A stretch of DNA of 64,000 nucleotides from Blochmannia endosymbiont of Camponotus sp. (GTDB lineage: Bacteria > Pseudomonadota > Gammaproteobacteria > Enterobacterales > Enterobacteriaceae): contig NZ_CP097759.1 in assembly GCF_023586365.1 (NCBI RefSeq), positions 372,001 to 436,000 on the forward strand, written 5' to 3'. Below, one piece after another: positions 11,773-63,313 of the stretch. Position 1 is the first letter of the stretch; every line of letters begins with the position of its first letter. Both the position numbers and the translations under genes were made by a program. The notes under the pieces are model-generated. The model did no database searches. It was not told the DNA's origin and saw nothing but the letters and a program-made list of their open reading frames with translations.

Positions 11773-12648
11773 TTACATATAAAGTGCAGATCTTAAATGA
11801 TTTATCACAGGATCAATAGTAGGAAATAAATTATGCCATAAGAAAAATGAATGAGCTGCTTGTCCTACTAACATACCTAATCCGTCTGCACAATAATTTG
11901 CCCCATTTTTTTTACACCATGTTATAAACAACGTATCTTTTTTTGTATAAAATAAATCATAACATTTAGTATCCGGAGTAACAAGAAAAGATGGTATTTT
12001 TGGAATAGTATTGTGTATATTGCTGGTTGTGGCGTTAATAATTAAACTATATTTATTCGTGTCATAACGTAATTTATATAAGGGTAGACATGATATGTTT
12101 TTATATCCTATTTCCTGATAATAAGATGTTATTTCTTGTGCTCTAGAGAACGTTCTGTTTACTATATTTATGTGACATGTTGTTATAGTAGTCAATAACA
12201 TAGGAATAATTCCTTTTGCAGCGCCCCCAGCGCCAATTAACAGAATTGACGTTACCATAGTGGTGAGTTGATCATGAGAAGCGATATGATTGTTATTATC
12301 TAACCAATTAAGACGTTTTAAATCACTAATAAATCCTACACCATCAGTATTATCTCCCAGTAAAGTACCGTTTTTTAGTTTTTTTATCGTATTAACCGAA
12401 CGAGCTTGTTCAGCTCGTTCGGTTAATTGATTACACAAAAAATATGCATTTTCTTTAAATGGAGAAGTAATATTTGCTCCCAATCCGCCTAACTTAAAAA
12501 AATTATGTAATAAATCATTAAAATTATCTTGTACTGCCAATTTAAGGTGATATTCTTTTGATATTCCAATTTCATGTGCAAATAATGCATAAATTTCTGC
12601 TGATTTGCTATGTCTAATTGGATTACCAAAAACAGCAAAAGAGCTCAT
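11773..12648 (-). CDS. aroE: Shikimate dehydrogenase
   Basis: AroE reduces 3-dehydroshikimate to shikimate with NADPH on the way to chorismate. At 291 aa it is longer than E. coli (272) through small loop insertions. Catalytic K65 (NITSPFKE) and D102 (LLGDNTDGVGF) are present, as is the nucleotide loop GAGGAAKGI. The ATG at 12648 has AAGGAG before it. It follows tsaC by 26 nt and is probably cotranscribed. Codons 74-86 lie within a perfect 16-bp inverted repeat. Confidence 0.95.
   Translation of the reverse strand: MSSFAVFGNPIRHSKSAEIYALFAHEIGISKEYHLKLAVQDNFNDLLHNFFKLGGLGANITSPFKENAYFLCNQLTERAEQARSVNTIKKLKNGTLLGDNTDGVGFISDLKRLNWLDNNNHIASHDQLTTMVTSILLIGAGGAAKGIIPMLLTTITTCHINIVNRTFSRAQEITSYYQEIGYKNISCLPLYKLRYDTNKYSLIINATTSNIHNTIPKIPSFLVTPDTKCYDLFYTKKDTLFITWCKKNGANYCADGLGMLVGQAAHSFFLWHNLFPTIDPVINHLRSALYM
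12391..12427. repeat. Perfect 16-bp inverted repeat inside aroE
   Basis: Arms 12391-12406 and 12412-12427 are exact reverse complements around TGTTC. They lie in codons 74-86 of aroE, which encode the conserved stretch NQLTERAEQARSVN, and the reading frame is intact. The arms contain CCGAACGAGCT and are richer in G+C than the gene around them. Confidence 0.9.
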
Positions 12649-12674
12649 CTATTTATCTCCTTGAATAGTAGAAA

Positions 12675-13259
12675 TTATTCACGAATTATTTTACCAGTCA
12701 TAACATCTCTAATTGTTGAGGGATTGGGGCTTCCAAATATATCTTCATGCATGATAGATATGTTATGTCCAAGTTGATCGTGTACTTCTGCAATAGTACG
12801 TGTGGGAGGCTGCCCAGATAAATTTGCACTAGTAGATACCAAGGGTTTTCCAAAAGCTAAGCAAAGACGTTGAATTGGTTCAAAATGACTGACTCGTACT
12901 GCTAAAGAAGAAAATTGACCCGTTAACCAATATGAGCTATTAGATTTTGACGGAAATACCCATGTCACCGGCCCAGGCCAAGTAGCAAAAACTCGTGATA
13001 GTTGGCTTGCATTTAAGCAACTATCGTCAATATACTTAAGTAATTGTGTGTAATTAGCGGCAATTAAAATTAAACCTTTCTTCCAAGATCTATTTTTTAT
13101 TTTTAGTAAAGTGAATATCGCTTTTTTATTATCAGGATCACATCCTAAACCAAATACTGATTCTGTAGGATAAACAATCACTTTACCTTGGCTTAGTTGT
13201 ATAAGTAAATCTTTCATATTTGATGCAGGAAATGTCCTTATTTTAGATTGTGATTCCAA
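12675..13259 (-). CDS. tsaC: Threonylcarbamoyl-AMP synthase (YrdC family)
   Basis: TsaC makes threonylcarbamoyl-AMP from threonine, bicarbonate and ATP, the first step of t6A37 modification of ANN-reading tRNAs. 194 aa (E. coli 190). Family features are YPTESVFGLGCDP, GLILIAANY, WPGPVTWVFP and STSANLSG. The longest frame starts with TTG at 13259; the ATG at 13217 (MKDLLIQLSQGKVIVYPTE) would remove 14 residues, and I cannot decide between them. Partners TsaB, TsaD and TsaE are not in this window. In E. coli too it neighbours aroE. Confidence 0.92.
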   Translation of the reverse strand: MESQSKIRTFPASNMKDLLIQLSQGKVIVYPTESVFGLGCDPDNKKAIFTLLKIKNRSWKKGLILIAANYTQLLKYIDDSCLNASQLSRVFATWPGPVTWVFPSKSNSSYWLTGQFSSLAVRVSHFEPIQRLCLAFGKPLVSTSANLSGQPPTRTIAEVHDQLGHNISIMHEDIFGSPNPSTIRDVMTGKIIRE

Positions 13260-13690
13260 TTAATGATTTCATAAAAGTAGCATATTTTATTATTTTATTT
13301 AAAATAAGGTGTTTAAAACAATAAATTGTCAAGTATTAGTTAAGTAACTTTTAAACTTATATGTAATATCTATAATAATTTAAGATTCTTATACATCAAT
13401 TATTTTTTAATAAAATATAGTTATATATTTTATTAAATATTTTGCGGTACAGCGTACGTTATTTTTGTATGTATTTAATACACGTTAAATATTTATTTAA
13501 TTATTTAATTCAACAACAAGTTCTGGATATCAAGAACAATTCCAAATGTCATTGATTCCTTAATGAAATTTTTATTTCAATATATTATCATTTACGAATA
13601 TAAAATATTTATTATCATATCTTGATTATATTCACAAGTCACTAGATAATATATAGAAATTAAAAATTTTACGTAATAATTTTTTATTTT
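13260..13690. other. Gene-free divergent spacer, tsaC to def
   Basis: 431 bases between divergent tsaC and def. In E. coli this interval holds topoisomerase-like yrdD, smg and smf (dprA), none of which can be recognised. Promoters for both directions must be here but the AT-rich sequence offers too many candidates. Confidence 0.5.
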
Positions 13691-14212
13691 ATGTCAATAT
13701 TAGAAATACTGTATTATCCTGATAAACGCCTTAGAACAATCGCTGATCCTGTTGTTGCAGTATCTGATGATACTAATCAAATTATAAATGATATGTTTGA
13801 TACTATGTATTTTAAAAAAGGTATTGGATTAGCTGCAACACAAGTCAATATTCACCAACAAATTATTGTTATTGATCTTTATAAAAAACACAAACAACGT
13901 TTAGTTTTTATTAATCCTGTTATTATAAAAAAAACAGGTGTTATTAGTATTCCTGAAAGTTGTTTATCTATTCCTCAAATATACGAGATTATTCCGCGTT
14001 CAGAAAAAATAACCATTCAATCATTAGATCAATATGGTAATCAATTTGAGATGGAAGCTAATAATTTATTAGCAATTTGCATTCAACATGAAGTAGATCA
14101 TTTATTTGGAAAACTTTTTATCGATCATTTGTCTCCACTAAAAATCAAAAAAATTCATAAAAAAATAAAAAAACTATCTAAAATATTTAAAAAAAGTCAG
14201 TTCTCTCTTTGA
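13691..14212 (+). CDS. def: Peptide deformylase
   Basis: Removes the formyl group from new proteins. 173 aa. The three motifs are GIGLAATQ, ESCLS (usually EGCLS) and QHEVDHL, whose cysteine and two histidines bind the metal, with the catalytic glutamate in HEVDH. The glycine-to-serine change in motif 2 is unusual, though the metal-binding cysteine stays. The C-terminus is lysine-rich. It is followed by fmt after eight bases, the usual def-fmt pair. Confidence 0.95.
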   Translation: MSILEILYYPDKRLRTIADPVVAVSDDTNQIINDMFDTMYFKKGIGLAATQVNIHQQIIVIDLYKKHKQRLVFINPVIIKKTGVISIPESCLSIPQIYEIIPRSEKITIQSLDQYGNQFEMEANNLLAICIQHEVDHLFGKLFIDHLSPLKIKKIHKKIKKLSKIFKKSQFSL

Positions 14213-14220
14213 TATATATT

Positions 14221-15189
14221 ATGGTACATTCAAAATCATTACGTATTGCTTTTTTTGGAACCACAAGTTTTGCGGCGTGGCATTTATATACATTGGCTCA
14301 CTTATCTACGCATCAGGTAATAGCAGTGTTTACTCAAGAGATGCAAGTACCTAAATGTAAATCCTTTTTATCTTTGTATAAAATAGCAAAAAAATATAAT
14401 ATATCGTTATTTCAATCTCGTATTTTATCTATTTCTGATATTATTTATATTATTAAAAAAATTGACGTGGATTTGATAGTAGTTGTGTCTTATGGATTAA
14501 TTTTACCTCAAGAAATATTAAATATACCACGACTAGGTTGTATTAATGTACATGGTTCACTATTGCCTCGTTGGCGCGGACCAGCGCCAATTCAGCGTGC
14601 ATTAGAACATGGTGATTTCATTACAGGAGTAACCATTATTCAAATGGATTCAGGAATAGATACTGGAGATATCTTGCATATTATGCCTTGCAAAATTTTT
14701 CCAAAAGACACTAGTTATACTCTTTCTAATAAATTAATGAATATTGGATCTACCATGTTATCTCAAGTACTGGATCGGTTTGTATTAGGTACATCTACTC
14801 TGATACCTCAAGATGCAAGTTATGCTACATATGCGCATAAATTAAATAAACAAGAAGCACGTATCAATTGGAATTTATCAGCAATCCAATTGGAACGATG
14901 TGTCCGAGCTTTTAATCCATGGCCAATTAGTTATTTTCAAATAAAAAATGATCGCATTAGAGTATGGGATGCCGAAGTAAGCAATCAAAACATCAATAAC
15001 TACTCTTCGTCATCACCTATATTACCTGGTACCATATTAGCAACTAATTCAAACGGTATTTATGTTGGCACTGGTGCTGGAATATTAATACTTACCGCGC
15101 TACAAATTTCAGGAAAAAAAATAACATCTGCGCACGATATTCTTAATGCATACAAAGAATGGTTCAGACCTAACTCTGTGTTAGAATAA
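14221..15189 (+). CDS. fmt: Methionyl-tRNA formyltransferase
   Basis: Formylates Met-tRNA for initiation using 10-formyl-THF. About 322 aa from the ATG at 14221 (MVHSKSLRIAFFGTTSFA), which matches the E. coli N-terminus; a TTG at 14209 overlapping the def stop is open in frame but less likely. The catalytic region NVHGSLLPRWRG and the later SGIDTGDIL with its aspartate are intact, and the C-terminal tRNA-binding domain is present. rsmB and trkA, which follow in E. coli, are gone; rplQ converges after 66 bases. Confidence 0.95.
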   Translation: MVHSKSLRIAFFGTTSFAAWHLYTLAHLSTHQVIAVFTQEMQVPKCKSFLSLYKIAKKYNISLFQSRILSISDIIYIIKKIDVDLIVVVSYGLILPQEILNIPRLGCINVHGSLLPRWRGPAPIQRALEHGDFITGVTIIQMDSGIDTGDILHIMPCKIFPKDTSYTLSNKLMNIGSTMLSQVLDRFVLGTSTLIPQDASYATYAHKLNKQEARINWNLSAIQLERCVRAFNPWPISYFQIKNDRIRVWDAEVSNQNINNYSSSSPILPGTILATNSNGIYVGTGAGILILTALQISGKKITSAHDILNAYKEWFRPNSVLE

Positions 15190-15255
15190 AATGATCGAGA
15201 TATGTTTGTTTTCGTTATTAGACTTAATTATATATATCCCTATGTTATTTCTTTT

Positions 15256-15633
15256 TTATATTTTTTGTTTTATTTTAGATCGTTCCACTAGTTCTATATA
15301 TGCCATTGGAGCGTTATCTCCTTTACGTAATCCACATTTTAGTATGCGAGTATATCCTCCAGGTCTATTATAGAAATGCGGACTAATTTGCGTGAACAAT
15401 TTTGTAACAACATCATTATTTCTAATTTTAGAAAAAACTAGACGACGATTTGCAATCGTATCCACTTTACTACGCGTAATCAACGGCTCAATAATACGGC
15501 GCAATGCCTTAGCTTTAGATAAAGTAGTTTTTATTATTTTATGAATTACCAATGAAACAACCATGTTTTTAAACATAGCCTTACGATGAGCACTAGTTCT
15601 GTTTAATTTAGAACCGCTTTTTCGATGACGCAT
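15256..15633 (-). CDS. rplQ: 50S ribosomal protein L17
   Basis: 125 aa, nearly full length (E. coli 127), beginning [20 protein letters not shown] and keeping the conserved [10 protein letters not shown]. It is the last gene of the alpha operon, transcribed from rpoA, with 39 nt between. Its 3' end faces fmt at 66 nt with no obvious terminator hairpin. Confidence 0.97.
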
Positions 15634-15672
15634 AATAAATTACCTTTGTTTTAAACATTAAATTATCCATGA

Positions 15673-16665
15673 TTAATTATCTAAAATATTCGTAGGAGGC
15701 CAATTTTCTAAACGTGTTCCCAAAGATAATCCACGAGATGCTAATACATCTTTTATCTCTGTTAATGATTTTTTTCCTAAATTAGGGGTTTTTAATAGTT
15801 CTACTTCTGTTCGTTGTACTAGATCTCCAATATAGTGAATAGATTCTGCTTTTAGACAATTAGCAGAACGTACAGTCAGTTCTAAATCATCAACAAGGCG
15901 TAATAAGATTGGATCAAATTCTGGTTTTTCTTCTTTATGTTCTGGTTGATGTATGTCCCTCAAATCAATAAATGCTTCAAGTTGTTCAGACAAAATTGTT
16001 GCTGCGCGCCTAATTGCTTCTTCCGGTTCTATAGTTCCATCCGTTTCCATATCAATAATTAGTTTATCTAAATCTGTACGTTGCTCAACGCGAGCAGCTT
16101 CTACATTATAAGAAATCCTTTCTACCGGGCTATAGCATGCATCTAATAATAACCGACCAATTGGTAAGATATCTGATTCAGAATTAAACCGAGAAGAAGC
16201 TGGAACATAACCTCGTCCACGCTGTACTTTAATACGCATACTAATAGATGCATTTCTGTCAGTTATATGACATATAATATGATTAGGGGTAACAAGTTTT
16301 ACACTATTGCTATCATACAAAATATCATTTGCGATTACAGGCCCAATACCGGATTTTTTCAAAGTTAAAGTAACACTATCTTTTCCTTCAATTCTAATCG
16401 CTAATTTCTTTAAGTTGAGTAAAATCTCTAAAACATCTTCTTGTATACCTTCTTTTGCACTATATTCATGTAACACCCCATCAATTTCAACCTCTGTTAT
16501 AGCATATCCAGGCATTGAAGACAGTAAGATACGACGTAGAGCGTTTCCTAAAGTATGACCAAATCCTCGTTCTAACGGCTCCAAAGTAACTTTAGCGCGT
16601 GTTTCAGTAATTTGTTCAATATCTACTAAACGTGGCTTTAAAAATTCTATTACAGAATTCTGCAT
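15673..16665 (-). CDS. rpoA: RNA polymerase alpha subunit
   Basis: 330 aa against 329 in E. coli. The N-terminal dimerisation domain shows [25 protein letters not shown]. The C-terminal domain that contacts UP elements and activators is complete, with [20 protein letters not shown] and [21 protein letters not shown]. Keeping a full C-terminal domain suggests that promoter UP-element contacts remain. The start has GAGGAAAC before the ATG. Confidence 0.98.
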
Positions 16666-16702
16666 GTTTCCTCTCTTTTTTTTACTATTTCACAAATTTT
16701 AC

Positions 16703-17326
16703 TTATTTTGAATATAATTCGATAATCAAATGTTCATCGATATTTGCAGATAATTCTCTACGCTCTGGATAACGTTTAAATAAACCTTGTAGTTTAATGG
16801 GATCTACTTCAATCCATGCTAATTTTTCTCTTTGCTGCTCAGAAAGCTCTAAAGAAGCACGAATCCTAGATTGATTATATGATTTTTTATGTATTTTAAT
16901 TACAGTATTAGGCGCAACTTGGTATGAAGCTATATTAACGATACGATTTTCAACCATAATGGATTTATGACTGACTAATTGACGGGCTTCAGCACGTGTT
17001 GCTCCAAATCCCATACGATACACAGTATTATCCAATCTGCTTTCTAATAATTTTAATAAATTTTCACCAGTATTACCTTTAATACGTGCAGCTTTCTTAT
17101 AATAATTAGAGAATTGACGCTCTAAGATGCCATATATACGTTTAACTTTTTGTTTTTCTCTTAACTGTATTCCATAATCTGAAAACCGAGATTTACGCAT
17201 ATTATGTTGCCCTGGAGGTTGTTCAAGTTTACATTTAGAATCAATAGCACGAATACCAGATTTTAAAAAAAGATCTGTACCCTCACGACGACATAATTTA
17301 AGTTTAGGTCCTAAATATTTAGCCAT
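16703..17326 (-). CDS. rpsD: 30S ribosomal protein S4
   Basis: 207 aa with the S4 RNA-binding domain ([23 protein letters not shown] and following) and the N-terminal [12 protein letters not shown] region. S4 is a primary 16S-binding protein. In E. coli it represses the alpha operon by binding its mRNA near rpsM; whether the site survives here cannot be judged. It is located between rpsK and rpoA as in E. coli. Confidence 0.98.
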
Positions 17327-17366
17327 ATTTTTTTTTATTCCTTACAAATAAACTAATGAATCTTCT

Positions 17367-17759
17367 TTAGACACGGCGTTTTTTAGAAGGACGGCAACCA
17401 TTATGAGGAATTGGGGTGACATCAGTAATGCTAGTAATATGAAATCCTGCCGCATTTAACGCTCGTACCGCAGATTCACGTCCTGGTCCTGGCCCTTTAA
17501 CCATAACTTCTAAATTTTTTATTCCATATTCTTGAACTATTTCAGCACAACGCTCTGCTGCTATTTGCGCAGCAAATGGTGTAGATTTTCGAGATCCTCT
17601 AAATCCAGAGCCTCCAGCTGTAGCCCATCCTAAAGTGTTACCTTGCTTATCACTAATAGTGATTATAGTATTATTAAAAGATGCATGTATATGGGCTACG
17701 CCATCTAAAATTTGTTTTTTGAGCCGCCTGCGCGCTCGAAGATTGGATGATTTAATCAT
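17367..17759 (-). CDS. rpsK: 30S ribosomal protein S11
   Basis: 130 aa, one longer than E. coli, with [33 protein letters not shown] and the C-terminal [11 protein letters not shown]. It forms part of the platform near the mRNA exit. Highly conserved; the only variable part is the first ten residues. Second gene of the alpha operon. Confidence 0.98.
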
Positions 17760-24857: not shown

Positions 24858-25565
24858 TTATATGCGAGTTTTATGTTTTTTCTTGCTAACATTATTAATC
24901 GTTTGATCCGATGAATATCCTGTATTCAGTAACACATCTCCTAAAATTTCCCCTTTAAAAACCCACACCTTAATTCCAATTACACCATACGTAGTACGTG
25001 CTTCTGAAAGACTATAATCAATATCAGCACGTAAGGTATGTAATGGAACCCGTCCTTCTCTGTACCATTCAGTACGAGCAATCTCAGCTCCGCTTAGTCT
25101 CCCGCTTACTTCTACTTTAATTCCTTTAGCTCCTAAACGCATAGCGTTTTGTACCACACGTTTCATTGCCCTCCTAAACACTACTCTACGTTCTAATTGA
25201 GATGCGATATTATCAGCTAACAGCTTGGCATCTAATTCTGGTTTACGAACTTCAGCAATATTGAGTTGAGTTGGAACACCAGAAATTTTTGCTATATTTT
25301 TACGTAATTTTTCAATATCTTCTCCCTTTTTTCCAATTATAAGACCAGGTCTAGCTGTATAAACAGTTACTCTTATGCTCTTAGCAGGACGCTCAATAAT
25401 TATACGGGATACTAAAGCTTTCGAAAGCTTTAGTATCAAAAACTGCCGTACTTTAAAATCATTCCCTAAATTGTCAGAAAAATCTTTGTTATTTGCGTAC
25501 CAGGTAGAATGCCACGTCTTGGTAATACCTAAACGCACCCCATTTGGATGTACCTTTTGACCCAT
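24858..25565 (-). CDS. rpsC: 30S ribosomal protein S3
   Basis: 235 aa with the type-II KH domain ([21 protein letters not shown] near residues 72-90) and C-terminal part with [28 protein letters not shown]. It is part of the mRNA entry channel helicase. Residues 43-53 ([11 protein letters not shown]) differ from E. coli more than their surroundings and are coded by a perfect 30-bp palindrome (25408-25437). Confidence 0.98.
25408..25437. repeat. Perfect 30-bp palindrome inside rpsC
   Basis: The 30 bases are their own reverse complement, centred between 25422 and 25423; one half is GATACTAAAGCTTTC. They code for residues 43-53 of S3, and the frame is intact. No loop bases are present. Confidence 0.92.
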
Positions 25566-30748: not shown

Positions 30749-31690
30749 ATGTTACATGTTTCGTCTGTTCCATTTTTAACTTTCAATCGCAAGGAATGGT
30801 CATCTTTTCGAGAGGAGATACCATTAATATTATCTCCAAGAGAAATCCTCAATTTAAGAAGAATAAATGATAATCTTTCTATGAATGAAGTAATAGAAAT
30901 TTATTTACCATTATCTAGATTGCTTAATCTATATATTTGTTCACATATAAAACGACAAAATATTTTAGAACAATTTTTAAGTATTCAAAACCAACATATA
31001 CCATATATTATTGGTATCGTTGGCGGAGTCGCTGTCGGGAAAAGCACTACAGCTAGAGTTTTACAAGCTTTGCTTAGTAGATGGCCTGAACACCGTGTTG
31101 TGGAATTAGTAACAACTGATGGATTTTTGCATTCTAATAAAGTATTAAAAAAACGACGTTTAATGAAAAAAAAAGGCTTTCCGCAATCTTATGATATGAC
31201 TAATTTAGTAAATTTTGTTTCCAAAGTTAAATCTGGAGTTCAATCAATGACAATTCCTGTATATTCTCATGTAATATATGACATTATTCCTAATGTTCAA
31301 CAGGTAATTTATAAACCAGATATTCTTATTTTGGAAGGATTAAATGTTTTACAAACTAATTACGATTATCATTATAACTTACCTTGTGTTTTTGTATCTG
31401 ATTTTGTTGACTTTTCTATTTATGTTGATGCTCCAGAATATTTACTACAAGAATGGTATATCGATAGATTTTTGAAATTTTGTTACACTACTTTTTCTTA
31501 TCCTGATTCTTATTTCTATCGTTATACTCAATTATCTAAAAAAAATGTAATTTCTATTGCTTCGCAAATATGGACTAAAATAAATAAACTGAATTTGCAA
31601 GAAAATATTTTACCTACCCGGGAACGCGCAAATTTAATTTTAAGAAAAGACGTAAATCATATAATAAACAACGTTCAATTAAGAAAATAA
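30749..31690 (+). CDS. coaA: Pantothenate kinase (type I)
   Basis: Phosphorylates pantothenate, the controlled step of CoA synthesis. 313 aa (E. coli 316). The P-loop is [19 protein letters not shown] near residue 94; also [28 protein letters not shown] and ILEGLNVLQ. It is convergent with birA and stands next to thrU, as in E. coli. The 270-nt gap to the tRNA genes probably holds promoters in both directions. Confidence 0.96.
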
Positions 31691-31891: not shown

Positions 31892-32716
31892 TTAAGATAT
31901 ATAAACAGAAATATTATTTCCAGAGTAATAACATACTGAACTCGTTTGATCCACTATTAGGGCTCCATGTATATTTATCCCGAGAGCTGTGCCACATATT
32001 GTACGACTCCCAACTAATAATGTGACTGGTTTATTATATAAACAGTCAAAAACTTTCCAATATGTAATAAATGGAGTAAACCCAAAAAGCATAAAATCTT
32101 TTAATTTCTTACGCAATACATGAATAAGCGTTGCGACTAAAATATTGCGATCAATCATGATGCCGATATCCATTAAATCAATCCAATTTTTACCAATTTT
32201 AGTATTTAATGTGGCATGCGTGCGTATAGATAAATTAATACCAATACCTATTATTATATGAGTAATATTATCAGTTCTTGTTATAATTTCGATTAAAATT
32301 CCTGCCAATTTTCGTCCATAAATATACAAATCATTAGGCCATTTGATTTTAATCTGAGACGCGCCTAAATTCTTTAATATTTTTGCCACAACAATGCTTA
32401 TCATTAAGCTAAATTCAATCATCGTTGGCGGAATCTTATTTAATTTCCAATAAATAGATAAGCAAATACCTTCTCCAACAGGCGTCACCCAAATTTTATC
32501 ACGTCTTCCTCTTCCTTGTGTTTGGTGTTCTGTAACACAAGCGTCGCCCGATTTTACATGTGGAATGTTGTCTATTATATATTGGTTGGTTGAATTAACT
32601 CTATTTAACACAATTACCCTACCTTCGGGTAATTGTGTTAAAATTTCAGATTCGTTTAAAAAAGGGTGGAATGTGGGAAAACTATAATTTTCATTATACC
32701 TTAGCAAGGTTTTCAA
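31892..32716 (-). CDS. birA: Biotin-protein ligase lacking the DNA-binding domain
   Basis: Attaches biotin to acetyl-CoA carboxylase BCCP. The catalytic and C-terminal domains are present (VNSTNQYIID, EHQTQGRGRRDKIW with the biotinyl-AMP loop GRGRR, KIKWPNDLY, GRKLAGILIE). About 274 aa against 321 in E. coli: the alignment begins near E. coli residue 55, so the N-terminal winged helix that represses the bio operon is gone. No in-frame ATG exists near the N-terminus; I use the TTG at 32716 behind GGAG, and in-frame TAA codons lie just upstream. Codons 25-38 are within a perfect inverted repeat. Confidence 0.93.
   Translation of the reverse strand: MKTLLRYNENYSFPTFHPFLNESEILTQLPEGRVIVLNRVNSTNQYIIDNIPHVKSGDACVTEHQTQGRGRRDKIWVTPVGEGICLSIYWKLNKIPPTMIEFSLMISIVVAKILKNLGASQIKIKWPNDLYIYGRKLAGILIEIITRTDNITHIIIGIGINLSIRTHATLNTKIGKNWIDLMDIGIMIDRNILVATLIHVLRKKLKDFMLFGFTPFITYWKVFDCLYNKPVTLLVGSRTICGTALGINIHGALIVDQTSSVCYYSGNNISVYIS
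32604..32642. repeat. Perfect 16-bp inverted repeat inside birA
   Basis: Arms 32604-32619 and 32627-32642 are exact reverse complements around the seven-base loop TACCTTC. The arm core is ACACAATTACCC. It lies in codons 25-38, near the 5' end of the gene, which remains in frame. Confidence 0.88.
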
Positions 32717-42513: not shown

Positions 42514-42984
42514 ATTATTATCCTTGATATAATTAGGTATTATATAATAAGTTCATGAAACTAAAATGATCATAAAAATGATAATATATATCATATTATG
42601 ATACACATATAAAACTAATGTAAATATAGTTTTATATTATTATTGTTAATAAATTATTATAAATTGATTAACTGAGTTACATTTAATTTTTGAACTTATA
42701 TGAGATTCTGTTAATAATGTAAGCACACGTATCTATGTGAATGTATTATTACTCATATAACACATGGTATGGAATGTAGTTTTTAAAATTTTAACATATG
42801 TCACCGTTATTTTAATGACGTATGACTTTTTAAAAAATTTTAATATTAAAATATTTTGAATTAATTGATTATGTTATGCAAGATAAATATATCTGAATGA
42901 CTATAAAACTGGTTTTACAATTAACACTAAGCGTTTACTTGATAATATATATAAGCTTATATTGAATACTTTTAATAAAAAATA
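42514..42984. other. Gene-free spacer between rplS and aroF
   Basis: 471 AT-rich bases holding no recognisable gene or leader peptide. The aroF-tyrA promoter (and in E. coli a TyrR box) would be expected close to 42540-42700; I could not identify either with confidence. Confidence 0.5.
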
Positions 42985-43340: not shown

Positions 43341-44105
43341 TTATTTCCTATTTTTTTTGCTTAATAATAAGCATTCATTTTTAAATTCGGAAAGTAAATT
43401 TTTTTCCTCATCAGTTAATTGCGTATCATTAAGTAAATCCGGTCTTTTAATCCAAGTACAACCCAAAGCTTGTTTTTGTTTCCAACGATGAATCCTATCA
43501 TGATTTCCTGATAATAATACCGATGGTACCTTCATACCATCAAAAGTTTCTGGTCGAGTATAATGTGGACAATCTAATCTTCCTTTGGAAAAAGAATCTG
43601 ATTCTTTTGAATCTTGATTTCCTAATACGCCAGGAAGAACTCTAGATATCGCATCTATTAATACCATTGCTGCTAATTCTCCTCCGCTAAGTATATAATC
43701 TCCTATGGACCACTCTTCGTCAATTTCCGTTTGAATTAATCTTTCATCAATACCTTGATATCTACCACAAACTAAAATCAATTTCTGATGATCATATGCT
43801 AATTTATATACATATTTTTGCTCCAGCTTTCTTCCTTGAGGAGAAAGATAAATCACTTTAATATTATTTCCTAATTCATCTTTTGCTTGATTGATTGCAT
43901 TTCTCAGGGGTTCAATCATCATTAACATGCCCGGCCCTCCTCCATAGGGACGAGCATCTACGCTGTGGTGTCGATCATATGTAAACACGCGCGGATTCCA
44001 CAATTTTATAGCAAGAATACCCCTTCGAATTGCTCGACCTACTATTCCGTAACGGACAATAGACTGAAACATATCCGGGAATAAAGTGATCACACCTAAC
44101 AACAT
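43341..44105 (-). CDS. trmD: tRNA (guanine-N1)-methyltransferase
   Basis: Methylates G37 next to the anticodon in tRNAs reading CUN, CCN and CGG, which prevents +1 slippage. 254 aa (E. coli 255). The trefoil-knot SAM site is formed by [20 protein letters not shown] and [14 protein letters not shown]; the catalytic aspartate region [10 protein letters not shown] is present. Confidence 0.96.
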
Positions 44106-50800: not shown

Positions 50801-51748
50801 TTACCTATTTTGGAGATAACATAAAGGATCTACAGATTTTCCTTTATATCTGATTTCAAAATGTAATTTTACTTCATTAGTCCCGCTGTTACCCATGGTT
50901 GCAATCTTGTCGCCCATTTTAACTGTTTGTTGTTCAGCAACCAATATCATATCGTTGTGCGCATAAGCGCTAAGATAGTTATTATCATGTTTGAGGATAA
51001 TCAAGTTACCGTATCCTTTCAATGTATTCCCAACGTATACTACTTTTCCATTAGCGGCAGCCAAGATAGGCTGACCTAAAGCGCCGGATATATCAATTCC
51101 TTTATTACCTCTTTCAACATCAGAAAAAGTATTAATAATTGTACCATTTGTTGGCCAATACCAATCTTTGACTGTTACTAAGTCTGACGCTGTTGAACGA
51201 GACATCATATTACAAGACATCTCCATATTAGGATAAGTATTATTATACGCCCTAGAATAGAATAATTGTTTTTTAACAAAAAATAATATTTTTTTAAAAA
51301 TATTATTGCCGCTGTTAAAAGGAATAAAAATTTCTCTTAAGAATTTTTCAAAATACAACCACATTGTATTATGATGTACTATTAAAACTTGATTTACTTT
51401 TAATACATTTACATCTTTAATATTATTTGTTTTTGCTAAATTTAAGCAACTATTTCCTGTAATCCAAGCAATATAAAACAAAGTATCACCTGATTTTACT
51501 GTATATGTAGACTTGTGATAAGAACCGTAATTTGTATGATTGTACTTATGAATATTAGTAACATCGGGTGTTTGCTGTGGATGTCGTATGTTTTTCTTTT
51601 TATCTTGAGACATATAGATAGTAGCATCAGAATTCGTGGAATATGACGCGCATTTACTATGGTATCTACGGATATTATCACTAGAACATCCCTCTAGAAA
51701 TACAAGAAATACTATTATATAAATTATCGATCTGCTATCTACTAGCAT
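50801..51748 (-). CDS. nlpD: Murein hydrolase activator NlpD
   Basis: 315 aa lipoprotein: signal sequence with lipobox-like VFLEGC (cysteine about 21), a LysM domain (about 80-125, STYTVKSGDTLFYIAWITGN), a low-complexity linker, and a C-terminal M23/LytM domain (KGIDISGALGQPILAAANGKVVYVG, KLHFEIRYKGKSVDP). The LytM zinc ligands are degenerate, as in E. coli NlpD, which activates the amidase AmiC at the septum. The gene downstream in E. coli, rpoS, is not present. Codons 148-156 form a 12-bp AT hairpin (51282-51307). Confidence 0.92.
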   Translation of the reverse strand: MLVDSRSIIYIIVFLVFLEGCSSDNIRRYHSKCASYSTNSDATIYMSQDKKKNIRHPQQTPDVTNIHKYNHTNYGSYHKSTYTVKSGDTLFYIAWITGNSCLNLAKTNNIKDVNVLKVNQVLIVHHNTMWLYFEKFLREIFIPFNSGNNIFKKILFFVKKQLFYSRAYNNTYPNMEMSCNMMSRSTASDLVTVKDWYWPTNGTIINTFSDVERGNKGIDISGALGQPILAAANGKVVYVGNTLKGYGNLIILKHDNNYLSAYAHNDMILVAEQQTVKMGDKIATMGNSGTNEVKLHFEIRYKGKSVDPLCYLQNR

Positions 51749-54905: not shown

Positions 54906-56336
54906 TCATGATAAGTCTTGGACTTTCCAATGGGGAAAGTGAAAACGAATAAATTCATGGAATGCCAATTCAAATTCACTGTAATTTTTATTATCATTAA
55001 GCTTATGGCGTGCAATAAGAGTACGAACCATTCCAGCTCCTACAGTTTCATTAGTTAATAGATCAATAAATATCATGCTCCCAGTTGTTGGATAATGAGA
55101 ATATTGATCTAATATCAATGGCTCATCAAATAACAACTTTATTAATCCAATTCCATTGAGTGGTATTGTGTTTGTCTTTTGAGATTGCAAGGTATTGATA
55201 TCTATTTCGTATTCTATATTTTTTACCTGTGCTCTTATAACTTTAGTAGCGATCTTGACATTAAAATATTGATTTTTTTTTAATGCTTCTTTTTTCATCC
55301 ATACCACATCTACCAACGCATTCTGAACAGGTGTAATAATGGTATTCGAATCAATTATCATATCTCCGCGACTAACGTCAATATCATCTTCCAAAGTTAT
55401 AGCGACTGCCTCTCTAGCCCTAGCCTCTGTCTGATCCGCATTAAATTTAATAATACGTTTAATAGTAGAAATGGTATTTGAAGGAAAAATATTAACACGT
55501 TGTCCAACATGCATACTACCAGAAGCAATAGTGCCAACATAACCTCTGAAATCTAAATTATGACGAATTACATACTGTACTGGAAAACGTAATTCTTGCT
55601 GATCAAAGTGTAAGGAATCATTAATATGAATATCTTCTAACATTTCCAACAATGTGGGTCCGTTATACCACTTCATATTTGTTGATAATGTCGCAACATT
55701 ATCTCCGTCTACAGCAGATATTGGAATAAATATTGTATGTATCTCAGTCGGTAAATGTTTCTTAGCAAATTCTAAATATTCTTTGCTAATTTTTTCAAAT
55801 ATTTTTTGATTATAATTGATTAAATCCATTTTATTAATTGCCACTATAATATACTGAATGCCTAAAAGCACAGTGATAAACCAATGCCTTTTAGTTTGAC
55901 TCTGTATTCCTTTACGAGCATCAACTAATAAAATAGCCAATTCGCTAGTAGAAGCGCCAGTAACCATATTTTTTGTATATTCTATATGCCCTGGAGTATC
56001 AGCAATGATAAATTTACGTTTTTTAGTAAAAAAATAACGATAAGCTACATCTATAGTAATGCCTTGTGCGCGTTCCGATTGTAATCCATCTACCAGCAAT
56101 GCTAAGTCTAATTTATTTTTTTGAGTACCAATTTTCTTGCTATCCGTATGAAGAACAGATAACTGATCATCATAAATTTGATAAGAATCATGTAACAATC
56201 GTCCTATCAAGGTGCTTTTACCATCGTCTACGCTACCACATGTAAGAAATCGCAACAACATTTTATGTTGTTGCGCATATAGATAATTTTCAATTCCTCC
56301 ATGATTGATAATTTCCTGCTCTATGGTGCTAATCAT
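54906..56336 (-). CDS. cysN: Sulfate adenylyltransferase subunit 1 (GTPase)
   Basis: About 476 aa (E. coli 475). An EF-Tu-like GTPase that drives APS formation by Cys[18 protein letters not shown] (P-loop), [23 protein letters not shown] and NKMDLINY are visible. The ATG at 56336 has AAGGGAT before it and gives [14 protein letters not shown] as in E. coli; the frame upstream overlaps cysD. It follows cysD after 10 nt. Codons 21-29 form an 11-bp perfect hairpin. Confidence 0.96.
56251..56275. repeat. Perfect 11-bp hairpin inside cysN
   Basis: Arms 56251-56261 and 56265-56275 (core CGCAACAACA) pair exactly around TTT. The residues encoded (QQHKMLLR) are those conserved in E. coli except M for S, so part of the symmetry may come from codon choice. 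Confidence 0.7.
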
Positions 56337-57277: not shown

Positions 57278-58708
57278 TTATATCAAATTAATAATTGAAT
57301 TAATAGGATAGTAATTCAATGCTTTTTGACCAAACCAATTGATTTTACTATGTAATGACACCACATCGCCAATAACCAACAAAGCAGGATAATTAGCCAT
57401 TTTCGCCAACTTTTCTAATTCAATTAAGGTCCCAATTAAAATTTTTTGATCTTGATATGTCCCTCGACTAATTACAGCAACGGGGGTATGCATATTTCTC
57501 CCATGGATGATTAGATTATTCCTAATACTTATAGCATTAAGCTTACCCATGTAAATTACTAATGTCTGTTGATTGTTTGATAAACTGTTCCAGTTAAATT
57601 GATTATCGCCACTTGCATTATGCCCTGTAATAAAAACAACGCTATGAGCATACTTTCTATGAGTTAAAGGAATACCAGAATAAGCTGTGACACCGATTCC
57701 TGCTGTAATACCAGGAACTACTTGAAAAGCAATACCTGCCTCTGATATTGCTTGCAATTCCTCACCGCCCCGACCAAAAATAAATGGATCTCCTCCTTTC
57801 AATCTAACGACTTTATTTCCCTTTTGCGCTAATTGTACTATAAATTGATTGAGTTTTTTTTGAGCAATTGAATGATTTCCAACACGTTTTCCAACACAAA
57901 TTTTATCGGCATCGCGCCGGGCTAAGTCTAAAATATCTGAATTTATTAAGTAATCGTATAGTATGATATCTGCTTGTTGCATCACTTGCAACCCTCTGAT
58001 AGTTAACAATCCTATATCTCCGGGCCCTGCCCCTACTAACGTGACGTGCCCTTTTTTATTATTCTTATCGTTTATAGAGCTGTTGAGCGCATAGTTAAAA
58101 ACTTTATTGGCTTCTTTAGGGCGACCTTGTTCCATTAAGGTAGCAACCTGCCCATTATAGAATATTTTCTCCCAAAACTGACGCCTAAGTACTGTATCTA
58201 CAATATGCTGTTTTACTTGATTACGCCATGCTCCCGCCAATTTTGCTACAAATCCCAGAGACTTTGGTAATAACAATTCAAGTTTTTCACGTAAAATACG
58301 CACTAATACAGGTGCTTTTCCACAAGAAGAAATTCCTATTAACACGGGATTACGATCAACAATAGCAGGGAAAATAAATGAACATTTATTCTTATCGTCT
58401 ACAGTATTTATTAAAATATTGTGTTTTTCAGCATTGTGGTATATTAAAGCATTTAATTTAGAATCATTGGTTGCTACAATCACTAAAATTACTTTATTTA
58501 ACATAATAGGTTGAAAATTTTTACTAATCCAATTGATACTTTGTGTAATTAAAATTTTTTTTAATTCTGTACAAAGGGCGGGCGCTACTAATGTAATAGT
58601 AGCGCCCGCCCTTTGTAGCATTTGTATTTTTCGCGCAGCAACAGTACCTCCTCCAACTACTAGCACTGGCCTATTTTTGAGATCAATAAATATCGGTAAA
58701 TATTCCAT
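57278..58708 (-). CDS. cysG: Siroheme synthase (trifunctional)
   Basis: 476 aa (E. coli 457). The N-terminal part is precorrin-2 dehydrogenase/ferrochelatase (VLVVGGGTVAARKIQML for NAD, then CGKAPVLVRILREKLE). The C-terminal part is uroporphyrinogen III methyltransferase (LVGAGPGDIGLLTIRG, VVRLKGGDPFIFGRGGEE, VVPGITAGIGVTAYSGIPLTH). It supplies siroheme for CysI. Codons 31-47 lie in a GC-rich 21-bp perfect inverted repeat. Confidence 0.96.
   Translation of the reverse strand: MEYLPIFIDLKNRPVLVVGGGTVAARKIQMLQRAGATITLVAPALCTELKKILITQSINWISKNFQPIMLNKVILVIVATNDSKLNALIYHNAEKHNILINTVDDKNKCSFIFPAIVDRNPVLIGISSCGKAPVLVRILREKLELLLPKSLGFVAKLAGAWRNQVKQHIVDTVLRRQFWEKIFYNGQVATLMEQGRPKEANKVFNYALNSSINDKNNKKGHVTLVGAGPGDIGLLTIRGLQVMQQADIILYDYLINSDILDLARRDADKICVGKRVGNHSIAQKKLNQFIVQLAQKGNKVVRLKGGDPFIFGRGGEELQAISEAGIAFQVVPGITAGIGVTAYSGIPLTHRKYAHSVVFITGHNASGDNQFNWNSLSNNQQTLVIYMGKLNAISIRNNLIIHGRNMHTPVAVISRGTYQDQKILIGTLIELEKLAKMANYPALLVIGDVVSLHSKINWFGQKALNYYPINSIINLI
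58570..58617. repeat. Perfect 21-bp inverted repeat, GC-rich, inside cysG
   Basis: Arms 58570-58590 and 58597-58617 are exact reverse complements around ATGTAA (58591-58596). Each arm holds AAAGGGCGGGCGCTAC or its complement, far richer in G+C than the gene. It encodes LQRAGATITLVAPALCT of the dinucleotide-binding domain, still a good match to the family, and the frame is intact. The most striking repeat of the window. Confidence 0.95.
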
Positions 58709-58924
58709 GGTATTACGTCGATTACTTTAAGTATAGTAAATATAAAAATTTTAATATATATATATAATATGATTATACAAGTACAAAATTACAATTAGAA
58801 TAATAGTTCTATGTCTTCATTTTTTAATTGTATTCTCTACAATCATAAAATGTCTATATATAAATATTTAATAATGACTAAAATATGAGAACACATACTA
58901 TCTCAAATAGGATACTGTTAACAA

Positions 58925-58946
58925 CCTTCCATATTATCCTGGAAGG
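58925..58946 (-). terminator. Candidate terminator of cysJIH
   Basis: A 7-bp stem CCTTCCA / TGGAAGG (58925-58931, 58940-58946) with an 8-nt loop, 63 nt after the cysH stop. The minus-strand tail TTGTT is only weakly U-rich. It lies in the 300-nt gap between cysH and cysG, which otherwise shows only AT-rich sequence. Confidence 0.45.
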
Positions 58947-59008
58947 AATTATCATATAATAATGCAAATAAAGTATAATCACATAAATATTTCATATAAA
59001 CAATAAAT

Positions 59009-59773
59009 TCACTCAATAATATGTAAACCACATTCACGTTGTAGTCCAAAAAAACGTGTATCTTCTTCTTTCATACCAGGTTCCCATTTTCTGCTAGTAT
59101 GTACATCTCCTATTGATACATAACCTTTTTGTCGCAATGGATGATATTCCAAAGAATGTTTTTCAATGTATCTATGAATCTGAAGAGAATTCCAATCAGC
59201 GATAGGCAGGAATTTAAAAATTCCATTTTGAATAGTTATTATTGGTAATTTTTTACGACTATCTGACTGATTTCTCCTTAATCCTGCAAACCATGTTTCC
59301 ACTTTCAGCGTCCTTAGAGCACGATGCATAGGTTCAACTTTGTTAATAGCGTTGTATTGTTTGATTCCTTTTGCACCCTGTGTCCATAATTTACCATATC
59401 GTGCTTCTTGCCATGCTGCAGATTGATTCGGAGAAAATACATGTAAATTTAATTGCATTTTTTCTGTTAATCGATCGATAAATCGATATGTTTCTGGAAA
59501 TAAATAACCAGTATCAATTAAAATAATCGGAATATTGGGATAATAATGAGTAGTTAAATGTAAACTGACTGATGACTGAATACCAAAACTTGAAGATAAT
59601 ATTGCTTGCTTAGGTAAATATTCTACAGCCCATCTGAACCTATCTACCGTATTTAAAGATTCTAAATATTGATTGATTTTAGTTAAAATCAACTTCTGTT
59701 CATTAATGTCTAGTGAATTGAGTTCCGTAAAAGTCCAGCAATGATTAATAACATTTAATGGTTTATTCATCAT
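59009..59773 (-). CDS. cysH: PAPS reductase
   Basis: Reduces PAPS to sulfite with thioredoxin or glutaredoxin. 254 aa (E. coli 244). Conserved: [15 protein letters not shown] (PP-loop-like), [34 protein letters not shown] and the C-terminal catalytic cysteine in RECGLH. Only that one cysteine motif, so it is the PAPS (not APS) type. It begins with ATG-ATG overlapping the cysI stop by 11 nt. Confidence 0.96.
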
Positions 59774-61493
59774 AAAAATCTTTTTCAGAATTTATAACAG
59801 CATGAACTATCCCAGACCTTACTACATAATCTCCGTAAGATTCGTGATTATTTCTCTCTTGTGCCCAACGACTAATAGTCATATCAAGGATGTTTAAAAT
59901 ATCATTTTCCGTAATATTTTCTTTGTACAATCGAGGAATACGCGTACCGATATTATTACCTCCTAAATAAAGATTATAACGCCCAATTGATCTTCCTGTT
60001 AATCCAATTTCTGATAACATCGCACGAGCACAACTGTTAGGACAACCTGTTACCCGTAAAATAATAGCATCTTTTTCTAATCTATATTTAGACATGATAT
60101 TTTCTATTTTAGTAATAAATTTTGGTAAAAATCGTTCTGCTTCTGCCATTGCTAATGGACAAGTAGGAAACGCTACACATGCCATAGATGCTTTTCGTTG
60201 CGGTGTAATATCATCATTGATTACACCATATTTTCTTAATGTACTTTCAACCATTAATTTATTGTCCTTAGATACTCCAGAAATAATTAAATTTTGATTT
60301 GCAGTCAATCTAAAAGAACCTGAATGTATTTGCGCAACTTCTGCAATCCCATGTTTTAACAATTTACGGGGATTATTATTTGATATTCTTCCGTTTTCTA
60401 TAAACAAAGTAAGATGCCAATAATCATCAATACCCTGCACCCATCCAAATCGATCGCCTCTATCCGTGAATACATAAGGATGAATTGGATGAAATGTTAC
60501 TCCAGAACGACGTTCAACTTCTGATTTAAATGTTGTTACTCCAACTCGATCTAAAGTATATTTTGTTTTCGCATGTTTACGATCGGATCTATTTCCCCAA
60601 TCTCTTTGTATTGTAACTACTGTTTCTGCAATTTTTAAAACATCTTTTGTAGAAATATATCCAAATTCGCTAGCTTTACGAGGATATGTAGTAGTATCTC
60701 CGTAAGTCATTGCTAATCCTCCACCTACTAACACATTAAAACCAATTATTTGATCAGTGTTATCACCTCTGATAGCAATAAAACTAAGATCGTTAGCATG
60801 AACATCTACATCGTTTATAGGTGGTATCGCAATTGCTATTTTAAATTTACGAGGTAAATAAGTAGCGCTTAAAATTGGCTCAGAGTCTGTAGATTCTGTT
60901 TTTTTTGAATCTAACCAAATTTCTGCATATGCATTAGATTTTGGCAGTAAATATGAAGAAATACTTTTCGCCAATTCCCATACCTGATGATGTAATGTTG
61001 ATTCCATTGGATTAGCTGTGCATATTACATTACGATTTACATCACCAGCAGTAGCTATAGAATCTAATCCCAATTCATTCAATAAACGATGCACATTTTT
61101 CAAGTTAGGTTTTAATAAACCATGTAATTGAAAGGTTTGCCGAGTAGTAAGACGTATCGTGCCGTATAAAGTATATTTTTCTGAAAAATCATCGATTGCC
61201 AACCATTGCGCCGGCATAATCACGCCACCTGGTAAACGACAACGTAACATCATATTAATTAGTGGTTCTAGTTTTTGATTTGCTCGTTCCACACGTACAT
61301 CGCGATCATCTTGTTGATACATTCCATGAAATCTAATTAATTGAGCATCTTCTGTATTAAATCCACCGGTTAAATTATTGTCTAAATTTTGGGCAATAGT
61401 ACCTCTTAGAAAGTTGCTTTCTTGTTTGATTCGTTCATTATCGGATAATACCAGTATATTTTTATCATTGTTATTATTATATTTTTTGTTCAT
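59763..61493 (-). CDS. cysI: Sulfite reductase hemoprotein (beta subunit)
   Basis: 576 aa (E. coli 570). Reduces sulfite to sulfide with six electrons on a siroheme coupled to a 4Fe-4S cluster. The four cluster cysteines are in [14 protein letters not shown] and [13 protein letters not shown]. The ferredoxin-like half-domain start ([26 protein letters not shown]) is intact. Its ATG shares one base with the cysJ stop (TAATG). Confidence 0.97.
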
Positions 61494-63313
61494 TAGTAAA
61501 TATCTCTCTGATAACGATGTTGTATCCGCATGTTATGCCAAAATTCATTCGCTTTGTCTAAACCCATACTCCCGTGTTTAGATGTTAACATAACTAAAGC
61601 CTTATTTACATCTTGAGCCATATGTTGAGCATCACCACATACATAAATATGCGCTCCTTCTTGAATCCATGACCAAAGTTCTACGCTATTACTTAACAAT
61701 TTGTTTTGCACATAAATCTTATTATTTTGATCTCTGGACCAAGCTGTATCAATTTTGGTTAATAAACCATCTCTGAAATAACGTTGCCATTCAATTTGAT
61801 AAAGAAAATCGTCTATAAATCTTAAGTTCCCAAAAAACAACCAGTTTTTTCCTGATGCATTATCTGCAGATCTTTGCTGCATAAAAGCACGAAACGGAGC
61901 AATGCCCGTTCCAGCTCCAATCATAATAACTGGAACATTAGGATTTTTTGGTAGCCTAAAATTATTATTAGGTTCAATAAAAATACGCATTTTTTCATCT
62001 TCTTTTATGCGATCTACTAAATAACCACTCGCACCACCTGTTCTAAAGCGTTCATTTGTCTTATAACGTACTACGCTTACAGTAATATGTATTTCATCTC
62101 CTACCTCTGATTGAGCGGAAGAAATGGAATAAAATCGGGGTTTCATAGGACGCAATACTTGCAATAACTCTTTCGGAGTTATTGCAATTGATACTCGATG
62201 CATCATTTCAATTATAGGCGTAGTTAAAATAAATTTATTTAATTTTTCTGAATTGCAGAATAAATCCAACAACATTTTATCTTGAGCAATAGTAGCTATA
62301 TTTTTTACGACAACAGAAGTATTATGAGTTAATTCATAATGTTTCTGTAACGCTTCACTAAGAAACATTGGCTCTTCTTTAACTTGTACTTGTTCAGTTC
62401 CTTTCAACCTTAATACTTCTAATAACTCATTAATAAGATTAGGATCATTTTCATACCACACTCCTAACGCATCTCCTGGTTGATAATGTAAATCAGAATC
62501 AGCAATATCTATCTCCAAATGATGCACATCTTTAAGTGAATCACGGCTAGTAATTTTGTATCGGGCTGATAAACAAGCAATTAATGGATATTCTTTGTTA
62601 CATACAGTGTGATTTACTTGTTCAAGACTGCAACTTTTATTATTTTGATTAAATATAGAAGGAGATGTTATTTTATTTTTTAATAAAAGAACTATTTTTT
62701 TTCTCCATACATTAGCTTCTTCTTTAAAATCGATATCGACATCGACTCGATCGCATAATCGATGCGCCCCAAGTTCTTCTAATCGGTGATCAAAATCTTT
62801 TCCAGCTTTAGCAAAATATTCATATGATCGATCGCCAAAACTAAATACCGCAAAATGAGTATTTGTCATTTTCACTGCTTTATTAGAAAACAAATACCTA
62901 TATAACGCAATTGCTTCTTCTGGAGGTTCTCCCTCTCCATAGGTGGAAGTAATAATAATTAATAATGTTTCTTTAGAAATTTTCTTAAATTTGTAATCCC
63001 CAGCATTAAACAACATGACATCTAGATTAATCGCATGAATATCATCGCGTAATTTCTCAGCTAATTGACGTGCATTTCCAGTTTGAGAAGCAGATATTAA
63101 AGTAATTGTTTTATTACAACGAACACCTTCTATTTTAGTGTTTTCAGAAATATCAGTTATTTTGTTAGGTTCTGCAACATTGGCTAATCCCCATAAATAT
63201 CCAGATATCCAAATCAGTTGAGAACTGGACAAAGTAACTAAAAATGATCGAATATAATCTAATTGTTCCGAAGTTAACGGTGTTATTTCATTATGTGCTG
63301 TTTTTTTCATCAT
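61493..63313 (-). CDS. cysJ: Sulfite reductase flavoprotein (alpha subunit)
   Basis: 606 aa (E. coli 599). Flavodoxin domain with FMN loops SASQTGNAR and [12 protein letters not shown] (residues about 70-210), then FAD domain ([27 protein letters not shown]) and NADPH domain ([29 protein letters not shown]) ending RYQRDIY. It passes electrons from NADPH to CysI. The linker after the flavodoxin domain is AT-rich and variable. First gene of cysJIH. Codons 376-385 form a 12-bp hairpin. Confidence 0.96.
62159..62187. repeat. Perfect 12-bp inverted repeat inside cysJ
   Basis: Arms 62159-62170 and 62176-62187 (TTGCAATAACTC and its complement) pair exactly around TTTCG. It encodes AITPKELLQ in the FAD domain; the frame is intact. 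Confidence 0.8.

What the first reader, a model, noticed from the sequence alone, without database searches (positions are those of the whole stretch)
12391..62187. Long perfect inverted repeats embedded in intact genes, each with its own sequence
Perfect inverted repeats with arms of 11-21 bp and loops of 0-7 nt lie inside cysG, aroE, birA, rpsC, cysJ and cysN; the ribD-secF spacer has one with 17-bp arms. The arms are not related between sites, so this is not one mobile palindromic element. All host genes stay in frame. By my rough estimate (chance pairing about 0.3 per position at this base composition), arms of 15 or more with loops under 9 should appear well under once in 64 kb; there are five. 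One explanation is template switching at near-palindromes during replication, turning them perfect, in a lineage with few repair genes. Another is selection for mRNA structure.
Basis: partly seen in the sequence, partly recalled or inferred. Interest (0 to 1): 0.75.

Follow-up and report, generated by a model that had tools for sequence, protein, structure and literature searches.

The report
Self-matching DNA hairpins inside symbiont genes
In a bacterium that looks like an ant symbiont, many genes carry short stretches whose two halves mirror each other, and comparison with sister species suggests that copying errors at DNA hairpins keep the halves matched and sometimes flip the bit between them.

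Summary
All seven named inverted repeats are perfect and in place; five have arms of 15 or more, against a mean of 0.03 in codon-preserving shuffles. The excess is confined to short loops and recurs in 160 kb sampled elsewhere in the genome. It is strongest in a nine-species group including this one, weaker in five deeper genomes of the genus, and slight in 20 other small genomes.

Sister species favour a DNA-level cause. Among privately changed pairs, both arms changed together in 7 of 37 for arms of 20 or more, but 44 of 2165 for arms of 6-7. Loops are exactly inverted between species at 6 of 32 diverged loci with arms of 12 or more, two inside genes. cysG shows amino-acid changes in both arms with pairing kept. 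Mismatch types and codon register do not point to RNA selection.

Best reading: template switching or equivalent hairpin conversion. Single-step creation is compelling at a few sites (rpsC), but polarised pooled tests show no excess. No repair-gene loss tested explains it. The mechanism is known elsewhere; spacer palindromes in this genus were reported in 2010.

The parts
58570..58617 (.). cysG palindrome, arms 21, loop 6; near-perfect in 9 species, with mirrored substitutions between species
   Evidence: 22-24 of 24 pairs in 7 of 9 species, 21/24 in G007, 17/18 in G004 (6-bp deletion); 7-13 of 22 pairs in four deeper genomes, G005 not aligned there
12391..12427 (.). aroE palindrome, arms 16, loop 5; private paired T-A to C-G change here; 5-nt loop exactly inverted between G011 and G013
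32604..32642 (.). birA palindrome, arms 16, loop 7; paired changes between species
25408..25437 (.). rpsC palindrome, arms 15, loop 0; perfect only in this one of 9 aligned species, through three private changes in one arm (M-Q to I-L)
62159..62187 (.). cysJ palindrome, arms 12, loop 5; 12/12 pairs in four species, 11/12 in G008, 7/12 in the other four
56251..56275 (.). cysN palindrome, arms 11-12, loop 3; 11-12 of 12 pairs in 8 of 9 species
779..817 (.). ribD-secF spacer palindrome, arms 17, loop 5; 14 bases of one arm are a private insertion
51282..51307 (.). nlpD A+T-only palindrome, arms 12, loop 2; two adjacent changes, private among five species, complete one arm
30803..30843 (.). type I pantothenate kinase (coaA-like) site: 12 of 17 pairs here, 17 of 17 in G010 and G011; 7-nt loop exactly inverted in G013 (15 of 17 pairs)
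44034..44067 (.). trmD site: 8 of 14 pairs here, perfect only in G013 of 9 aligned species

Best explanation
These are ordinary stretches of gene or spacer that passed through a DNA hairpin during replication. When a nascent strand or single-stranded template folds back, the polymerase copies one arm using the other as template, or crosses to the complementary strand and back. Each such event either copies a new mutation from one arm to the other (or erases it), or inverts the loop, or occasionally builds or extends an arm. Once an arm exceeds about a dozen bases with a short loop, these events recur often enough to keep the arms largely matched across species, even in coding sequence, so both arms evolve together. 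Shown: the excess, its confinement to short loops, coupled arm changes, loop inversions, amino-acid changes in both arms of cysG. Inferred: that replication template switching, rather than repair or recombination within an extruded hairpin, is the enzymatic route. Not shown: how most of the repeats first arose.
For: (1) Excess over codon-preserving shuffles in the window and elsewhere in the genome (in 160 kb, 6 genic with arms >=12 against 0.40, and 4 with arms >=16 against 0.00 in 30 shuffles). (2) Only short loops. (3) Coupling: of pairs privately changed in a focal species, the compensated share is 44 of 2165 (arms 6-7), 15 of 387 (8-9), 3 of 81 (10-11), 3 of 49 (12-14), 3 of 46 (15-19), 7 of 37 (>=20); arms >=12 together 13 of 132 (Fisher p about 1e-5, not corrected for shared loci). 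Spacers of 30-60 nt give 2.0-2.7% up to arms of 11. (4) Exact loop inversions: 7 of 810 loci with arms 6, 11 of 518 with arms 7-8, 3 of 80 with arms 9-11, 6 of 32 with arms >=12 (loci binned by position); in the last class 18 comparisons against 0.30 expected from base composition. Two are inside genes: pantothenate kinase GCCATTG to CAATGGC, aroE AAAAC to GTTTT. (5) A spacer palindrome with 38-39 bp perfect arms in four species is replaced in G008 by a perfect 45-bp version carrying 8 and 7 private substitutions in its two arms. (6) cysG: RAGA..VAPA in one group, RVGA..IAPT in the other, with pairing kept.
Against: Most changes in long repeats are one-sided (110 of 132 pairs), so conversion is incomplete. 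Eight of the 13 compensated pairs with arms >=12 come from G008, for which the direction of change is unknown. A simpler count over repeats shared by three or more of five species is less clear: 22 of 115 variable pairs compensated against 6 of 72 at 20-99 nt spacers in the 160 kb, but 9 of 47 against 6 of 31 in the window region. Long-arm controls with long spacers are too few (1 of 27 changed pairs). Polarised tests show no general rise of mismatch-to-match changes and no net gain of multi-base inverted copies. Private changes are not consistently confined to one arm. No repair-gene loss tested predicts strength.
Confidence: 0.72

Rival explanations
1. Selection keeps mRNA hairpins (stability, translation pausing) or transcription terminators; paired changes are ordinary compensatory substitutions.
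For: Several repeats persist across 5-9 species with paired changes. Convergent spacers hold slightly more repeats than their share of length predicts (15 of 65 against about 10, my sum).
Against: Exact loop inversions are not predicted. G-U mismatches are hardly commoner than A-C on the mRNA strand (84 v 78; diluted by sites paired in few species). Codon register is flat (10/9/14) although wobble-to-wobble pairing would be cheapest. 21 of 32 repeat groups are listed as perfect in one species only (one of them, at 42607, is paired in others too). rpsC, pantothenate kinase and aroE changes replace amino acids.
Confidence: 0.15
2. Inversion and conversion occur by RecA-independent recombination or repair at extruded cruciforms rather than by polymerase template switching.
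For: Gives the same loop inversions and arm matching; sbcD and recA are not found.
Against: The 14-base insertion that completes one arm in the ribD-secF spacer needs new DNA synthesis. The data otherwise hardly separate the two.
Confidence: 0.11
3. Chance, low G+C or codon constraints, or assembly error.
For: The genome is 30% G+C in the window; A+T-only repeats are expected more often.
Against: Codon-preserving shuffles; chance level at long spacers in the window; the longest arm in the window is G+C-rich for this genome (cysG 57%); several of the same sites recur in other genomes of the genus.
Confidence: 0.02

Closest known systems
Quasipalindrome-associated template-switch mutation in E. 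coli (PMC7202029: search listing and passages; Ripley 1982 seen only in its reference list)
   Same: Hairpin arms are made to match through a template switch.
   Different: There: imperfect repeats corrected in reporters. Here: natural repeats kept matched across species; no general correction excess found in imperfect ones.
Template switching in yeast coding genes (PMC8604942: abstract and passages)
   Same: Arm homogenisation and exact spacer inversion inside coding genes, inversions with arms over 9 bp and short spacers, amino-acid replacements.
   Different: There: strain-level events in 39 genes of a eukaryote. Here: a bacterial chromosome, with repeats carried across species of a genus.
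Coding palindromes in nematomorph mitochondria (PMC6649704: abstract, passages, whole discussion)
   Same: Perfect inverted repeats inside coding genes, gained and lost between species, conversion proposed.
   Different: There arms reach 284 bp, and the word spacer does not occur in the main text, so I saw no report of loop inversion; here arms are mostly 11-24 bp in genes.
Long palindromes in Blochmannia genomes (PMC3017870: abstract start and passages only)
   Same: Same genus, if the recalled identification holds. They counted 20, 10 and 6 large palindromes in three genomes, all but two at least partly in spacers.
   Different: They argued that spacer palindromes would decay without selection; coupled arms and inverted loops give a mutational alternative, and the short coding ones are additional.
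Template switching creating and maintaining RNA hairpins (PMC8794818: abstract and outline)
   Same: One process both creates stems and restores pairing, mimicking compensatory change.
   Different: There in RNA genes, where structure is functional; here in protein genes and spacers.

Membership tests
Template-switch mutation at inverted repeats | Arms homogenised: change in one arm copied to the other | tested here: met
   Compensated share of changed pairs rises from 44 of 2165 (arms 6-7) to 7 of 37 (arms >=20); a coarser count agrees in one of two regions
Template-switch mutation at inverted repeats | Spacer inversion between long arms | tested here: met
   6 of 32 diverged loci with arms >=12; 7 of 810 with arms of 6
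Template-switch mutation at inverted repeats | Short spacer | tested here: met
   Excess at loops 0-7; about chance level at 20-99 in the window
Template-switch mutation at inverted repeats | Clustered one-step changes that create symmetry in one arm | tested here: inconclusive
   Clear at rpsC and 779-817; pooled gains do not exceed losses (7 v 0; 0 v 5)
Template-switch mutation at inverted repeats | Depends on replication / polymerase | not testable with these tools
   Needs reporters or mutation accumulation
Functional RNA hairpin under selection | G-U tolerated more than A-C | tested here: not met
   84 G-U v 78 A-C, 134 other, at 33 genic sites
Functional RNA hairpin under selection | Conserved in place across related species | tested here: inconclusive
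   Some shared by 5-9 species, 21 of 32 groups perfect in one species only
Mobile palindromic element (REP/RPE-like) | Arms related between sites | tested here: not met
   Arm sequences differ between window sites; a 401-base piece around the cysG site, the only site searched genome-wide, matches only its own place, on both strands

The most novel reading that the evidence does not exclude
In this lineage short palindromes behave as self-perpetuating elements inside essential genes: once formed, hairpin copying keeps both arms alike against point mutation across species, so that separate residues of one protein change as mirror images (clearest in cysG) for mutational, not functional, reasons.
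Probability: 0.4. Interest if true: 0.78.

Novelty: new member of a known kind. Interest (0 to 1): 0.6.

Why it matters
If right, it gives a natural bacterial system, with 14 single-contig genomes in one genus, in which template switching can be followed across species inside coding genes. It offers a mutational explanation for palindromes in this genus that were read as selected. It also warns that compensatory changes and multi-residue substitutions in such genomes need not mean RNA structure or adaptation. The gradient within the genus lets one ask which change in replication raised the rate.

Tried and rejected
Repair-gene loss as the cause. sbcD, recA and recJ: 0 of 14 genomes. xseA: 0 of 14 over the cut-off, weak fragments in 3. 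mutS: only G005, 1 of 14, with one stop codon inside the match. ExoI: 13 of 14, not G003. polA: 13 of 14 over the cut-off, partial in G005. rnhA: 14 of 14. None of these eight families separates strong from weak lineages. In 20 other small genomes mutS does not go with fewer palindromes: with an open mutS 15 genic repeats (arms >=12) against 4.7 expected (10 genomes), without 2 against 2.6 (10 genomes; G104 and G066, with broken matches, counted as without).

A clade-only onset was rejected. On 70 kb each, five deeper genomes seemed nearly to lack coding palindromes (1 with arms >=14), but 80 kb more from each gave 6 against 0.16 expected.

Imperfect-repeat correction as a general high-rate process was not seen once polarised. 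Unpolarised versions looked positive, but decayed old palindromes produce the same signal. In one search the rows for longer loops at 13-14 of 14 include outer parts of long palindromes and are not clean controls.

Multi-base clusters creating against destroying an exact local inverted copy, other settings than those in the text: 20 v 20 (flank 3, two changes), 11 v 7 (flank 4, two), 8 v 7 (flank 2, three), 32 v 34, 16 v 20, 10 v 10, and 0 v 2 (flank 4, three). With G008 as focal species the direction is unknown.

The terminator reading of spacer repeats: 33 co-oriented, 17 divergent, 15 convergent, close to the summed lengths of such spacers, convergent slightly over.

The genome-contig scan and the E. 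coli collection gave no match.
Full report
WHAT WAS CHECKED. The window is bases 372001-436000 of a single-contig genome of 790,497 bases. Its genus group in the held set has 14 genomes.

THE REPEATS ARE REAL AND IN EXCESS. One search finds all seven repeats named, at the stated places. With codon-preserving shuffles of genes and dinucleotide-preserving shuffles of spacers (60 per genome) the window has 8 repeats with arms >=12 and loops 0-9 against a mean of 0.37, and 5 with arms >=15 against 0.03. Inside open reading frames the counts are 6 (arms >=12) against 0.12, and 4 (arms >=14) against 0.02. The same search at spacers of 20-99 nt in the window gives about the chance level. Pooled over the 14 genomes, loops of 0-7 nt hold about twelve times more repeats per loop length than loops of 20-99 (94 over 8 lengths v 83 over 80 lengths, arms >=10, arm G+C >=0.2; my sums).

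HOW WIDE IT IS. In another 160 kb of this genome there are 4 genic repeats with arms >=16, and none in shuffles. Counting genic repeats with arms >=14: nine related species including this one have 31 in 621 kb of the window region (1 to 7 per genome) against about 0.3 expected, and five of them 22 in 800 kb elsewhere against 0.4. The five deeper genomes of the genus have 7 in 750 kb against about 0.4; G005 has none. Twenty other small genomes of the same family, chosen by me from 119, have 4 in 800 kb against about 1.3; these stretches are not homologous to the window. Sister species share many sites, so the counts are not independent.

WHAT SISTER SPECIES SHOW. Alignments of nine species over the window and of five over 160 kb show two kinds of site. 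Some are private. In rpsC only this species is perfect, through three private changes within seven bases of one arm that alter two residues. In the ribD-secF spacer 14 bases of one arm are a private insertion. In trmD only G013 is perfect. Others are shared but not static. cysG keeps 22-24 of 24 pairs in seven of nine species (21 of 24 in G007; 17 of 18 in G004, which has an in-frame 6-base deletion), while the arms differ between groups by mirrored changes, including amino-acid changes on both sides. In four deeper genomes 7-13 of 22 pairs match. A spacer palindrome with 38-39 bp arms in four species appears in G008 as a perfect 45 bp version with 8 and 7 private substitutions in the two arms.

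ARMS CHANGE TOGETHER. Taking repeats perfect in a reference species, and only pairs at which all reference species agree, I counted private changes in each focal species (eight focal species in the window region, five in the other). Among changed pairs the compensated share was 44 of 2165 for arms 6-7, 15 of 387 for 8-9, 3 of 81 for 10-11, 3 of 49 for 12-14, 3 of 46 for 15-19 and 7 of 37 for arms of 20 or more. Arms >=12 together: 13 of 132 (Fisher p about 1e-5 against arms 6-7; loci recur across focal species, so the p value is optimistic). Spacers of 30-60 nt give 2.0-2.7% up to arms of 11; longer arms are too few (1 of 27 changed pairs). Eight of the 13 are in G008, the outgroup of its four comparison species, so there the direction of change is unknown, though the arms still differ together. 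Most changes in long repeats remain one-sided (110 of 132). A coarser count, over repeats shared by at least three of five species, gives 22 of 115 variable pairs compensated against 6 of 72 at spacers of 20-99 nt in the 160 kb, but no difference in the window region (9 of 47 against 6 of 31).

LOOPS ARE INVERTED. Among repeats kept at 70% or more of pairs in both species, with loops of 4-12 nt that differ at two or more places, the loop of one species is the exact reverse complement of the other at 7 of 810 loci (arms 6), 11 of 518 (arms 7-8), 3 of 80 (arms 9-11) and 6 of 32 (arms >=12) (loci binned by position). In the last class base composition predicts 0.30 comparisons; 18 were seen. Two of the six are coding: pantothenate kinase, 7 nt, M-P-L in G011 against I-N-G in G013, and aroE, 5 nt. 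Two of the six loops are A+T only (TTATA, TATAT) and weaker evidence. Selection on RNA pairing or stepwise substitution does not predict this; passage through a DNA hairpin does.

RNA SELECTION. On the mRNA strand of genic repeats G-U mismatches (84) are hardly commoner than A-C (78); the test is diluted by repeats that are paired in few species. Codon registers of 33 genic repeats are 10, 9 and 14; the wobble-to-wobble register (10) is not favoured. Spacer repeats follow spacer length by orientation, with convergent spacers slightly over.

RESULTS AGAINST A SIMPLE STORY. If imperfect repeats were perfected often, mismatched pairs should become matched more often at short loops. Polarised, they do not: 0.0173, 0.0179 and 0.0194 at 10, 11 and 12 of 14 matches for loops 0-8, against 0.0153, 0.0189 and 0.0181 for loops 20-99. 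Clusters of three or more private substitutions that create an exact local inverted copy (flank 3) number 7 against 0 that destroy one in the window region, but 0 against 5 in the other 160 kb; other settings are about even. So maintenance and loop flipping are supported, while the way most repeats arise is not. Insertions and step-wise extension of an existing core are possible.

WHY HERE. sbcD, recA and recJ are not found in any of the 14 genomes, xseA is missing above its cut-off, and mutS is found only in G005. These losses are shared by strong and weak lineages, and mutS does not track palindromes in 20 other small genomes. The cause of the high level is open.

WHAT IS KNOWN. Template switching between inverted-repeat arms, with arm homogenisation and spacer inversion, is described in yeast genes (PMC8604942, abstract and passages). 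Coding palindromes with proposed conversion are described in nematomorph mitochondria (PMC6649704, passages and whole discussion). Template switching as a creator and keeper of RNA hairpins is in PMC8794818 (abstract and outline). E. coli quasipalindrome reporters are in PMC7202029 (passages). Large palindromes in three Blochmannia genomes, all but two at least partly in spacers, were counted in 2010, with the remark that spacer palindromes would likely decay without selection (PMC3017870, passages). In the titles and abstract starts listed by my searches of the open library (one search listed 10 of 20 papers) I saw none on coding palindromes, arm conversion or loop inversion in this genus; subscription journals and preprints are not held.

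VERDICT. A real and strong feature of this lineage, best explained by recurrent hairpin-mediated template switching. Mechanistically it is a new member of a known kind; its persistence in bacterial protein genes is the interesting part.

Noticed in passing
58570-58617 (ortholog in G004): The G004 cysG gene carries a private in-frame 6-base deletion inside the palindrome; what remains is still paired (17 of 18).
   Followed up: partly
G005 (L065-L068, L165-L168): The genome with the lowest identity to the window of the 13 relatives has the only mutS match (one stop inside), only about 283 residues of polA matching, and no genic palindrome with arms of 14 or more in 150 kb.
   Followed up: partly
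L157-L160 (G012, 300-380 kb): A perfect palindrome with arms of 66 bp was found in this 80-kb sample.
   Followed up: no
G003: The only one of 14 genomes without a match to the ExoI C-terminal family, yet palindromes are not stronger there.
   Followed up: partly
G129, G020, G060 (L137-L138, L111-L112, L123-L124): Three other small genomes have a marked excess of long palindromes over shuffles, mostly outside genes (8, 5 and 4 with arms of 14 or more in 40 kb each, against 0.53, 0.33 and 0.07).
   Followed up: no
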